Below, piece by piece: positions 1 to 42,345 of a DNA stretch of 42,371 bases. Source of the DNA: Candidatus Nomurabacteria bacterium (lineage in GTDB: Bacteria > Patescibacteriota > Minisyncoccia > Phycocordibacterales > UBA9973); the NCBI GenBank assembly GCA_016186435.1, contig JACPLQ010000012.1, positions 1 through 42,371 of the forward strand, written 5' to 3'. Below the pieces are notes generated by a model that had not been told where the DNA came from, did not search any database, and worked only from the letters and a program-made list of their open reading frames with translations. Both the position numbers and the translations under genes were made by a program. The first letter of the stretch is position 1; each line of letters begins with the position of its first letter.

Positions 1-93
1 TCGGCACCTCGATGTCGGCTCACCTTAGCGCGGCGGTGGAGAAGCTGCCAAGCGTTTGGCTGTTCGCCAATTAAAAAGGTACGCGAGCTGGGT

Positions 94-949
94 AAGGATT
101 CATGAGCCCAGCTGAAGACGATCTGCGAGAATAAATAAAAGATAAAAAATAAACTGACTCATAACGGTGAAGTCCGGTTGTATGTGGTAAAATATATACA
201 ATGGATAATATCGTGGGAAGATTACAATCTGCATTTCCAGCACATCAGCTTGATGTGATTATAGGGTCATTGTTAGGTGATGCTCGGCTTGAATGCCGGT
301 CTAAAGGAATACGAGCAAAATATACAGCTCGCTTTAGAGTGCATCACGGGTATAAACAGAAAGAGTATGTCTGGTGGAAGTATGAGGTACTTAAGAATTT
401 AGTTTCAAAAGAGCCAAAAGAAATATCTTGGACAAACAAGAAACGAAATCTTCACGAAGTATCGTGGTACTTTCATACAAAAAGCTTGAAAGACTTCGGA
501 ATCATTCACAACATTTTTTACAAAAATGGAGTGAAAAAGTTTCCTACAGAAATACTCCCGATTTTTTCTGACAGAATGTTGGCTGTGTGGTATATGGATG
601 ATGGTTCCAATAATCACGGAAACGTGACTTTGAGCACCCACTCATTTTCTTTAGAAGATCAAAAAATAGTTGTCGACTTTCTAAAAGAAAAATATCAGAT
701 ATCACCAACAGTTGTTAAGGATAGAAGTCAATGGAAAATTTCAATTGGCAGTCACGATTATGATCGTTTCCTCTCAATTGTTTCTCCATTTGTTCCAAAA
801 GCAATGAACTATAAGATTGATAATCCCCGTATCGACTTGTCTGTGAAAATGGACAGAGTGGGCTAGGAGGCTTGCTAACACGTCAGTTCCAGAATAGGAG
901 AATTTTGGAAAAGGTATAGTCAGTACCGTTAGTAATAATGGAAGGAACG
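94..949 (+). mobile_element. Group I intron (insertion after E. coli-equivalent U2584) containing a LAGLIDADG homing endonuclease ORF
   Basis: 5' exon AGCTGGGT pairs with downstream GCCCAGCT, giving a P1 with U.G at the splice site. P7-like pairing actgact (153-159) / agtcagt (918-924). S-like element aaggtatagtc at 911. Ends in G before tcagaccgt. P4-P6 not resolved by eye. Confidence 0.75.
201..866 (+). CDS. LAGLIDADG-family homing endonuclease (intron-encoded)
   Basis: 221 aa ORF with LDVIIGSLLGDARL and MLAVWYMDDGSN motifs; lies inside the 23S intron. Confidence 0.85.
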   Translation: MDNIVGRLQSAFPAHQLDVIIGSLLGDARLECRSKGIRAKYTARFRVHHGYKQKEYVWWKYEVLKNLVSKEPKEISWTNKKRNLHEVSWYFHTKSLKDFGIIHNIFYKNGVKKFPTEILPIFSDRMLAVWYMDDGSNNHGNVTLSTHSFSLEDQKIVVDFLKEKYQISPTVVKDRSQWKISIGSHDYDRFLSIVSPFVPKAMNYKIDNPRIDLSVKMDRVG

Positions 950-958
950 TCAGACCGT

Positions 959-1319
959 AGAGAAGTTTTTAATAGACTTTTCTACAATCTGAATCCTCAG
1001 GGGAAAATAAAACTGTTATAAAACTGAAACCAACCATGTGCATTAAATTGCACCCACGGCGGCTATGTATAGAAATATATATATAGGCAAGCTAACTTAT
1101 ATCGGCGAAATCCTAATTCACAAAAAATGAATGGACAACGCCGAGGGAAGGATTAGTGACTAGTAACTAGTTGCCAGTGCCTAGTAGTAAATTACTAGAA
1201 CCTAGAACCTATAAACTAGAACCTAATTCGCCCGTAGAGACTGAATGTTAGCGTTCTCCAAAAGAAATTTTGAAGAATATGTCACAGTCCAATCCTCACA
1301 GTAATGTGAAACGCAGATG
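959..1319 (+). ncRNA. Second, ORF-less group I intron in 23S rRNA (insertion after E. coli-equivalent U2593)
   Basis: Lies between exon-like tcagaccgt (950-958) and cgtgagacagg (1320-). Contains gagactgaatg ... aagaatatgtcacagtcc, an R/S-like P7 pairing GACTG/CAGTC. Ends in G. Confidence 0.65.
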
Positions 1320-1626
1320 CGTGAGACAGGTTGGTCTCCTATCTACTGCACTCGTTGATTCTTGAGAAGATTTGCGCTCAGTACGAGAGGACCGGCGTGA
1401 ACTGACCTCTGGTGTACCTGCTGTTCTGCCAAGAGCATTTGCAGGGTAGCTATGTCGGGAATGGATAACCTCTGAAAGCATCTAAGAGGGAAGCCAGCTT
1501 CAAGATTAGGAATCGTTAAGAACCGTAGGAGATGACTACGTTGATAGGCTTTAGGTGTAAGTCCCGTAAGGGATTGAGCCGAGAAGTACTAATGTTTCGA
1601 TTCCTGTTAAGAAATTTGGAAATCAC

Positions 1627-1656: not shown

Positions 1657-1675
1657 ACCAAGAAAGAAAAGACAA

Positions 1676-2026
1676 AATTCATAAACTTTGTAGAGGAAGT
1701 TCTTTTTGGGGCACGTTTGCGCGATCCGGGTAACTGACGATGTTTGTCGCGAAACGAATCCTGCGCGTAGCAGGATTGTGAGGGATATGACACCTCGTTG
1801 CCCCACCAAATTTGGTAGCGTAGCTTAAAAAAGAATTGCGTCTCAGTGTGCGGGGGTACTTACCGACTCCTACGGCTGCTCTCCCCGCCCGAGCTTGGGA
1901 TCTTACCAGAGGTCCGCAACTCTAAAGCTTCTCTGTCGCAATCAGAGAAATGTAGGTCCAAGTCCTGCCGCTACCAAACTATCTGCCGAAACAATTGTTT
2001 CGGCTCCTCTACAAAGTTTATGAATT
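1676..2026 (+). ncRNA. Structured spacer RNA enclosed by a 22-bp perfect inverted repeat; contains two tRNA-like folds
   Basis: 1676-1697 AATTCATAAACTTTGTAGAGGA is the exact reverse complement of 2005-2026. Inside are a GGGGCA...TGCCCC-ACCA domain (1708-1807), a GGTAGCG...CGCTACC-A domain (1814-1976) and a palindrome CCGAAACAATTGTTTCGG. Confidence 0.55.
1814..1976 (+). tRNA. tRNA-like / divergent tRNA with ~98-nt D-loop insertion (anticodon position GCA; possibly a pseudo-tRNA)
   Basis: 7-bp acceptor GGTAGCG/CGCTACC, anticodon arm CTCTG-TCGCAAT-CAGAG, T arm GTAGG-TCCAAGT-CCTGC, D stem GCTT/AAGC. Atypical C33, C55 and oversized D-loop. Confidence 0.35.
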
Positions 2027-2053: not shown

Positions 2054-2172
<119 letters not shown>

Positions 2173-12399: not shown

Positions 12400-12707
12400 T
12401 TGCGGGGCCACGAATCGAACGTGGGTCTTAAGGTTATGCTTACCACTTCAGTTTTCACTGCTTCAAATTGAATTTGTGGTCTGGACTATACCATCTCCTT
12501 TCTTAAGAATAATTCTCAAAATTAAGGAGCTCGTCATCTAGTCTCTACACATTTATTTCCAACTATGTTGGAAAATTTAGCTCGGAATTGTCTTTCTGCT
12601 AAAAGCAGAGAGGATTTCTCCGAATTTGACGAGTGCGCACCAATAGGTTTCCCTAAAGGGGGCCCATATTGTTTGAGCCTTACGAGATGCCTCTTCTCTA
12701 CCCCGCT
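12400..12707 (-). tRNA. tRNA-Met(CAT), probably initiator, split by a group I intron in the anticodon loop
   Basis: Minus-strand exons GCGGGGTAGAGAAGAGGCATCTCGTAAGGCT + CATAACCTTAAGACCCACGTTCGATTCGTGGCCCCGCAA. Anticodon arm TAAGG-CTCATAA-CCTTA. Position 1 (A) x 72 (A) unpaired, as in initiators. Confidence 0.85.
12439..12675 (-). ncRNA. Group I intron (IC3-like), inserted between U33 and C34 of tRNA(CAT)
   Basis: Minus strand: TCAAATTCGGAGAAATCC, TGTAGAGACTAGATGACGAGC, GGAGATGGTATAGTCCAGACC. These resemble the P4-P7 core of the Azoarcus tRNA-Ile(CAU) intron as I recall it. U.G P1 (GGCU/GGCC); ends in G. Confidence 0.85.
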
Positions 12708-13036
12708 ATTAAGGCATAATATATTAGATCTTTAAAATATGCAAGTTGTTTGCTATAGTAAACCTATGATATAATACATACTAAAGATATTGTTTGCTCA
12801 ATTCAGATAAATAGGATTCACAAAAAAAGAATTAATACAGTCTTGAATTTTTGGAAAAAACTGCTACACTTACGAAAGAGTCAATTTCGAAAGCCTTATT
12901 ATGTAAATACGCACACGAGTAAAGTTTACGATAACTATGAAAAATATTATGGTGTATGTAGATTAATAGTAAGAAGAGGAAAGGACTTAAAGTATCGGAT
13001 GCTTGGTCTGATTGATGGGGTAAAAAGTAGTATTTT

Positions 13037-42076: not shown

Positions 42077-42161
42077 TTGTGGGCCTTCAATCCGTCTTCG
42101 CGTAAAGCTACGACGAGACGATGAAACATGAAGGATATCCTGCTCGGGACACTTAAAACAT

Positions 42162-42312
42162 TTTGAAAAATGATCGGTATTCGGACTTGTTCCCTCTCGC
42201 CAAATGGCGTATCAGGACTTACCGTAGCGGCACTGTACCGGAATCCCCGCCTTGACTCGTCAACGCGAGGCAGGTCACCGGTTTCCCCAATTCACTTCTT
42301 TAATTTTTCAAA
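42162..42312 (-). promoter_or_regulatory. Cobalamin riboswitch aptamer (minus strand), with a palindromic insertion
   Basis: Minus strand: 10-bp P1 TTTGAAAAAT/ATTTTTCAAA; GGGGAAACCGGTG...ATTCCGGTACAGTGCCGCTACGGTAA...AAGTCCGAATACC, matching the GGGAA-GGTG-TCC-CCGC-CTGTAA-AGTCNGGATACC order. Confidence 0.82.
42246..42274. repeat. Palindromic repeat inserted in the riboswitch aptamer
   Basis: CCCGCCTTGACTCGTCAACGCGAGGCAGG; relative at 33907. Confidence 0.8.
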
Positions 42313-42345
42313 GGGAACATTTTTAGTGTATACTGGTTTTATCTG

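What the first reader, a model, noticed from the sequence alone, without database searches (positions are those of the whole stretch)
1676..2026. 23S-5S spacer holds a 22-bp inverted-repeat stem enclosing two tRNA-like folds
A perfect 22-bp inverted repeat (1676-1697 / 2005-2026) encloses three domains. Domain A is GGGGCA...TGCCCC-ACCA with three internal stems (CGTTTgCGCGA/TCGCGAAACG, ATCCTGC/GCAGGAT, GAGG/CCTC). Domain B has a complete acceptor, anticodon arm and T arm but a ~98-nt D-loop. Domain C is a CCGAAACAATTGTTTCGG hairpin. I cannot match it to RNase P, SRP, tmRNA or 6S RNA. It could be a new spacer-encoded ncRNA, a processing scaffold, or a MITE-like insertion.
Basis: partly seen in the sequence, partly recalled or inferred. 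Interest (0 to 1): 0.72.

Follow-up and report, generated by a model that had tools for sequence, protein, structure and literature searches.

The report
Non-decoding tRNA-like module in rRNA spacer
[quoted passage not shown] relatives in the same order carry real tRNAs or similarly altered ones at the same place, which suggests that tRNA shapes there outlive their role in translation, perhaps as cutting signals for ribosomal RNA.

Summary
The structure exists as described: a perfect 22-bp stem (1676-1697/2005-2026) encloses two cloverleaf-like domains and a hairpin between 23S and 5S rRNA in a Ca. Nomurabacteria genus. Rfam has no match. It is neither an unrelated new RNA nor a clear MITE. 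A survey of 210 spacers shows an order-wide pattern: at least 23 of 95 same-order spacers carry tRNAs or tRNA-like units (0 of 62 elsewhere in the class), often inside an equally long stem (11 of 21 tested, plus the window) and with a boxA-like GTTCTTT. About half of these units cannot decode: wrong-sized anticodon loops or missing U33 (0 of 50 tRNAs outside the spacer); some also have D-loops of 39-98 nt. In one relative genus, acceptor and T arms co-vary and persist while the part between them changes from 29 to 152 nt. Domain B fits a strict tRNA descriptor (0 of 20,000 shuffles) and keeps 10 of 11 invariant tRNA positions, losing only U33. However, tRNA covariance models do not score it, and domain A resembles a tRNA only in outline. 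Best reading: a degenerate member of a stem-enclosed spacer tRNA module whose units probably survive as RNase III/P/Z processing substrates. There is no RNA evidence.

The parts
1356..1612 (+). 3' end of 23S rRNA
   Evidence: Rfam LSU 1356-1600; conserved in 54 of 80 same-genus genomes
1676..1697 (+). 5' arm of the perfect 22-bp enclosing stem (inferred RNase III substrate)
1699..1705 (+). boxA-like motif GTTCTTT (inferred NusB/S10 antitermination site)
   Evidence: enriched in long spacers of the order: 20 against 3.45 expected, 2 antisense
1708..1808 (+). Domain A: three-arm cloverleaf outline, acceptor-like GGGGCA/TGCCCC, 3' ACCA followed by a palindrome; no T-loop motif
   Evidence: not scored by the tRNA model
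1814..1976 (+). Domain B: tRNA-like unit with all four stems, 98-nt D loop (1827-1924), anticodon-loop position TCGCAAT (1936-1942; C33), T loop TCCAAGT (1957-1963), discriminator A1976, no encoded CCA
1985..2004 (+). Domain C: 8-bp hairpin GCCGAAACAATTGTTTCGGC just inside the 3' arm
   Evidence: hairpins at the same place in L134, L116, L121, L199, L206, L210
2005..2026 (+). 3' arm of the 22-bp enclosing stem
2059..2166 (+). 5S rRNA
   Evidence: Rfam RF00001, 72.8 bits

Best explanation
The element is a divergent member of a module that sits in the 23S-5S spacer of many genomes in this Patescibacteria order: a long intramolecular stem enclosing one or more tRNA or tRNA-like units, usually with a boxA-like site and a hairpin before the 3' arm. 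It would be transcribed as part of the rRNA precursor (inferred). RNase III would cut the 22-bp stem, and RNase P and a 3' tRNA nuclease would recognise the acceptor/T-arm parts (inferred). Together these cuts would separate 23S from 5S and discard the insert. Because this needs only the acceptor stem and elbow, the decoding parts (anticodon loop, U33, D-loop size) are free to decay or take up inserts (pattern shown in relatives; inferred for domain B). Domain A is probably a unit that has also lost its T-loop motif (weakly supported).
For: In other genera real tRNAs lie in the same place inside an equally long stem: L134 stem-tRNA-GTTCTTT-tRNA-hairpin-stem, L116, L121, L155, L199. Units were found in 21 of 95 order spacers by ARAGORN or descriptor, 23 of 95 with two covariance-model hits, and 0 of 62 class spacers by ARAGORN and descriptor. 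The stem test gives p <= 0.01 in 12 of 22 spacers, window included. 16 of 31 units lack a 7-nt anticodon loop or U33, against 0 of 50 tRNAs outside the spacer, p = 9e-9. D loops of 39-97 nt recur in L160, L167, L206, L210, L211. In genus g55, acceptor and T arms pair in 97.9% of cells with two-sided changes at 6 of 12 pairs, while the part between them is 29-152 nt and several anticodon-arm loops are 3-5 nt. Domain B keeps U8, G10, A14, A21, G53, T54, C56, A58, C61 and C72 of the 11 columns invariant in the genome's own tRNAs; only U33 is lost. A normal tRNA-Cys(GCA) exists elsewhere, so domain B is not needed to decode. The genome encodes RNase III, RNase P RNA and NusB.
Against: No transcript or processing data. 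A tRNA covariance model built from the genome's own tRNAs gives domain B under 4 bits and domain A nothing, though the model cannot span a 98-nt loop well. Corresponding D-expanded units in L160, L167, L206 and L210 score 16-25 bits, so domain B is the most divergent. No congener has a homologous sequence, and most congeners have short spacers without any module (33 of 53 are <=150 nt), so it is dispensable. The D-loop insert folds no better than chance (z = -1.1). Domain B has no encoded CCA. The 50-tRNA control comes mostly from one genome.
Confidence: 0.55

Rival explanations
1. The units are decaying tRNA pseudogenes left after spacer tRNAs were lost or replaced. They have no function of their own, and the stem is only a convenient way to remove spacer RNA.
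For: Rapid turnover: genomes with 92-99% identical 23S differ completely in the unit, and some have lost it. Only the window's species has tRNA-like units among 53 congeners. Domain A has lost the T loop and CM scores grade from 72 bits down to none.
Against: In genus g55 acceptor and T arms change in a compensatory way (6 of 12 pairs) and T-loop and 3' end stay, while decoding parts are overwritten; pure decay would spare no part. Large D-loop inserts arose in several families with all stems intact.
Confidence: 0.25
2. The units make a stable small RNA with its own job (for example a CCA-tailed, possibly aminoacylated RNA used outside translation, or a regulator), and the spacer is just where it is transcribed.
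For: Acceptor stem, elbow and often CCA are kept without decoding features; z = -7.2 for the whole fold.
Against: No conserved sequence or single shape across the order: middle parts, number of units and acceptor sequences all differ; the genus mostly lacks it.
Confidence: 0.12
3. A MITE-like or other mobile insertion with 22-bp terminal inverted repeats.
For: A 10-bp direct repeat AGAAAAGACA flanks the stem (p = 0.01); sporadic presence among congeners.
Against: Single copy in its genome and absent from the congeners and same-order genomes searched and from phage records; modules with unrelated stems occupy the same spacer; no obvious target duplication was seen by eye in relatives.
Confidence: 0.08

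Closest known systems
Spacer tRNAs of bacterial rRNA operons (16S-23S ITS tRNA-Ile/Ala, distal tRNAs)
   Same: tRNA units co-transcribed with rRNA, released by RNase P and other nucleases; boxA antitermination in the same transcripts (general knowledge; PMC10250234 abstract for tRNAs in rRNA transcripts and boxA)
   Different: Here they lie between 23S and 5S, often inside their own long stem, and about half of the units in the order cannot decode
tRNA punctuation of mitochondrial transcripts
   Same: tRNA folds serve as cut sites in a polycistronic precursor (works-like comparison, general knowledge)
   Different: There the tRNAs still decode; here many do not; no processing data yet
rRNA intervening sequences removed by RNase III
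   Same: Long stem-loop that is cut out of an rRNA precursor (general knowledge)
   Different: Those lie inside 23S rRNA; this lies in the spacer and carries tRNA-like units
Non-canonical tRNAs (review PMC7609411)
   Same: Departures from standard arm sizes, including an 8-nt anticodon loop in one yeast mitochondrial tRNA
   Different: Those are active decoders; a text search of that review for CPR, Patescibacteria and rRNA operon found nothing
CPR rRNA operons with tRNAs between 23S and 5S (PMC8172020)
   Same: Notes that in some CPR genomes tRNAs and/or protein genes separate 16S/23S or 23S/5S
   Different: The passages found do not describe stems, boxA, or non-decoding units

Membership tests
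Canonical tRNA gene | Four stems of standard length in register (7/4/5/5 bp) | tested here: met
   Domain B, 0 mismatches; 0 of 20,000 shuffles. Domain A not met
Canonical tRNA gene | 7-nt anticodon loop with U33 | tested here: not met
   Domain B loop TCGCAAT has C33; all 50 outside tRNAs have U33
Canonical tRNA gene | D loop of normal size | tested here: not met
   98 nt in domain B
Canonical tRNA gene | Covariance-model score above threshold | tested here: not met
   No RF00005 hit; own model under 4 bits; ARAGORN finds none there
Order-wide stem-enclosed 23S-5S spacer module (defined here) | Stem of 18 bp or more enclosing the units | tested here: met
   22 bp; 11 of 21 other unit-bearing spacers also significant
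Order-wide stem-enclosed 23S-5S spacer module (defined here) | tRNA or tRNA-like unit inside | tested here: met
   Domain B
Order-wide stem-enclosed 23S-5S spacer module (defined here) | boxA-like GTTCTTT in the spacer | tested here: met
   1699-1705; enriched in the order
Order-wide stem-enclosed 23S-5S spacer module (defined here) | Processing by RNase III/P in the cell | not testable with these tools
   The genome encodes RNase III and RNase P RNA; no RNA data
MITE | Several copies or an empty site with target duplication | tested here: not met
   Single copy; flanking 10-bp repeat only, p = 0.01
Known Rfam RNAs (RNase P, SRP, tmRNA, 6S, others) | Match to a family model | tested here: not met

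The most novel reading that the evidence does not exclude
An order of Patescibacteria maintains, between 23S and 5S rRNA, a class of non-decoding tRNA-like RNAs. Selection keeps the acceptor stem and T-arm elbow, while the anticodon and D loop are free to shrink, grow or take up inserts of 100 nt or more. These units act as processing signals or as small RNAs in their own right.
Probability: 0.5. Interest if true: 0.78.

Novelty: new variant of a known kind. Interest (0 to 1): 0.64.

Why it matters
Spacer tRNAs are normally assumed to be there for translation. A lineage in which the tRNA fold outlives its decoding function would separate the two roles of a spacer tRNA (translation and precursor cutting) and give natural mutants for asking what RNase P and 3' tRNA nucleases need. 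It also means that tRNA annotation and codon-usage inference in Patescibacteria may count units that cannot decode, and miss D-expanded ones. Finally, it explains part of the large length variation of these spacers.

Tried and rejected
Direct DNA homologues of the element in 60 relatives and in phage records: none. Rfam at gathering and relaxed limits: only chance miRNA-type hits. Functional tRNA-Cys(GCA) reading of domain B: rejected (C33, 98-nt D loop, discriminator A, normal tRNA-Cys elsewhere). tRNA-Ala reading of domain A: rejected by sight (no G3:U70, no T-loop motif). Duplex-energy test of the flanks was uninformative because it joined long gapped duplexes; it was replaced by a helix-run test. 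The tRNA covariance model could not bridge large D loops. Congeners with long stems, some with boxA, but no tRNA-like unit (L044, L050, L055, L094, L095, L102, L148) gave no tRNA signal with the model, so their domains are not claimed to be tRNA-derived. The figure '6/31 D loops' should read 5/31; the sixth (L211) lies in a spacer whose 5S was not found and is not among the 31. Literature searches found no description of such a module; only open-licence papers were searched.

Full report
WHAT IS THERE. The window is contig C7 of a 0.7-Mb, 29-contig genome. Named congeners are labelled Candidatus Nomurabacteria. The 23S rRNA ends near 1612 and 5S lies at 2059-2166. Between them, a perfect 22-bp stem (1676-1697/2005-2026) encloses a boxA-like GTTCTTT (1699-1705), domain A (1708-1808), domain B (1814-1976) and a hairpin (1985-2004). 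The fold is far stronger than chance (z = -7.2), and the stem exceeds all shuffles.

DOMAIN B. A strict descriptor was used: perfect 7-bp acceptor, U8, 4-bp D stem, D loop up to 160 nt, 5-bp anticodon stem with 7-nt loop, 3-6 nt variable loop, 5-bp T stem, T-loop TxCRAxx. It fits 1814-1975 with no mismatch, and none of 20,000 dinucleotide shuffles of the spacer fits. In the rest of the window the same descriptor finds only the five ARAGORN tRNAs. In 370 kb of other strand-bases it finds two long-D-loop cases, one of them itself in a 23S-5S spacer (L211). Of the 11 alignment columns invariant in 31 tRNAs of this genome, domain B keeps ten (U8, G10, A14, A21, G53, T54, C56, A58, C61, C72 in standard numbering, by my reading). 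It loses only U33, the one tied to decoding. It is nevertheless too divergent for tRNA covariance models, and ARAGORN does not report it.

DOMAIN A. It has the outline (closing stem, three arms, ACCA) but no T-loop motif and no model score. Its ACCA starts a palindrome, ACCAAATTTGGT. The same arrangement (ACCA pairing with a TGGT downstream) is seen in most units of genus g55. I treat its tRNA ancestry as possible, not shown.

RELATIVES. No congener has a homologous sequence, so I compared the spacer by position: 53 genus, 95 order and 62 other class spacers. ARAGORN finds tRNAs in 18 of 95 order spacers, and in none of the genus or class ones. The descriptor and a covariance model raise the order count to 23. 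L134 has exactly the window's plan: stem, tRNA-Ile, GTTCTTT, second tRNA, hairpin, stem. L155, L206, L210, L186 and L167 are similar. In 12 of 22 unit-bearing spacers, window included, the enclosing helix is significant at p <= 0.01, with 18-23 net pairs. GTTCTTT occurs 20 times in the 47 order spacers longer than 150 nt, against 3.45 expected and 2 on the other strand. It occurs once in 21 class spacers. That it is boxA is inferred from the known consensus and from the presence of NusB in the genome.

LOSS OF DECODING. Of 31 spacer units, 16 have an anticodon loop that is not 7 nt or lacks U33. None of 50 tRNAs outside the spacer does (p = 9e-9). Examples are L186 (three units, loops of 6, 6 and 6 or 8 nt), L217 (8), L123 (8), L179 (6) and L167 (5). 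D loops are 65 nt (L160), 78 (L167), 39 (L206), 97 (L210), 44 (L211) and 98 (window). Rfam itself accepts the L210 and L211 units as tRNA (36.9 and 37.4 bits), so the D-expanded class is real.

SELECTION ON THE FOLD. Genus g55 (the genus of L160) gives 12 genomes with 82-99% identical 23S ends. Eight carry an orthologous unit. Acceptor and T arms pair in 97.9% of cells, 6 of 12 pairs show two-sided changes (shuffled mean 1.7, 0 of 500 as high), and sliding the partners destroys the signal. Between these arms, the middle is 29-152 nt; in the predicted folds several anticodon arms end in 3-5 nt loops, and L301 carries a large insert there. This pattern argues that the acceptor/T-arm part is kept for something other than decoding. 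The caveat is eight sequences, with the unit boundaries chosen by eye.

HOW IT PROBABLY WORKS. Shown: position in the rRNA spacer, stem, units, boxA-like motif, loss of decoding features, compensatory change in relatives, and RNase III, RNase P RNA and NusB genes in this genome. Inferred: co-transcription with rRNA, RNase III cutting of the stem, RNase P and 3' nuclease cutting of the units, and release of 23S and 5S precursors. Most congeners do without the module, so it is not essential for separating 23S from 5S. The main rival is plain decay of spacer tRNA genes. The g55 covariation speaks against that for g55, but not directly for the window.

VERDICT. It works like a spacer tRNA or tRNA punctuation element. 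It is not a tRNA gene by the tests made here. I found no description of non-decoding, stem-enclosed tRNA-like units in the 23S-5S spacer in the papers searched, although CPR operons with tRNAs and/or protein genes between 23S and 5S have been noted (PMC8172020).

Noticed in passing
window 12400-12720, minus strand: The Rfam group I intron (12462-12685) splits a tRNA gene, probably tRNA-fMet (5' half GCGGGGTAGAG..., 3' half ...CCCACGTTCGATTCGTGGCCCCGCAACA); ARAGORN misses it.
   Followed up: partly
window 1-1355: The 23S rRNA is interrupted by a stretch holding a 221-aa ORF (201-866) that looks like a homing endonuclease of an rRNA intron (by sight only).
   Followed up: no
L033, L054, L057, L096, L110, L113 (23S-5S spacers): A second, 5S-like copy with an insert of about 80 nt (core CGCCTTACAGGCGCNGTACACCTTT...CTTGC) lies before the true 5S. 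The insert's core is a dispersed repeat: matches in 19 of 148 order genomes, five listed in G110 and in G179, and in reverse orientation in L117.
   Followed up: partly
L044, L050, L055, L094, L095, L102, L148: Other genomes of the same genus have 23S-5S spacers with long stems, multibranched interiors and a hairpin before the 3' arm, some with GTTCTTT, but no recognisable tRNA unit. Their origin is unexplained.
   Followed up: partly
window 1665-1674 and 2027-2036: A 10-bp direct repeat AGAAAAGACA flanks the stem (p = 0.01); a possible insertion footprint.
   Followed up: partly
window 42155-42336, minus strand: Cobalamin riboswitch aptamer at the contig end.
   Followed up: no
whole genome G000: No tRNA-Ala(TGC) was found among the tRNA loci read (Ala GGC and CGC only); it may be intron-split or in an assembly gap.
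   Followed up: no
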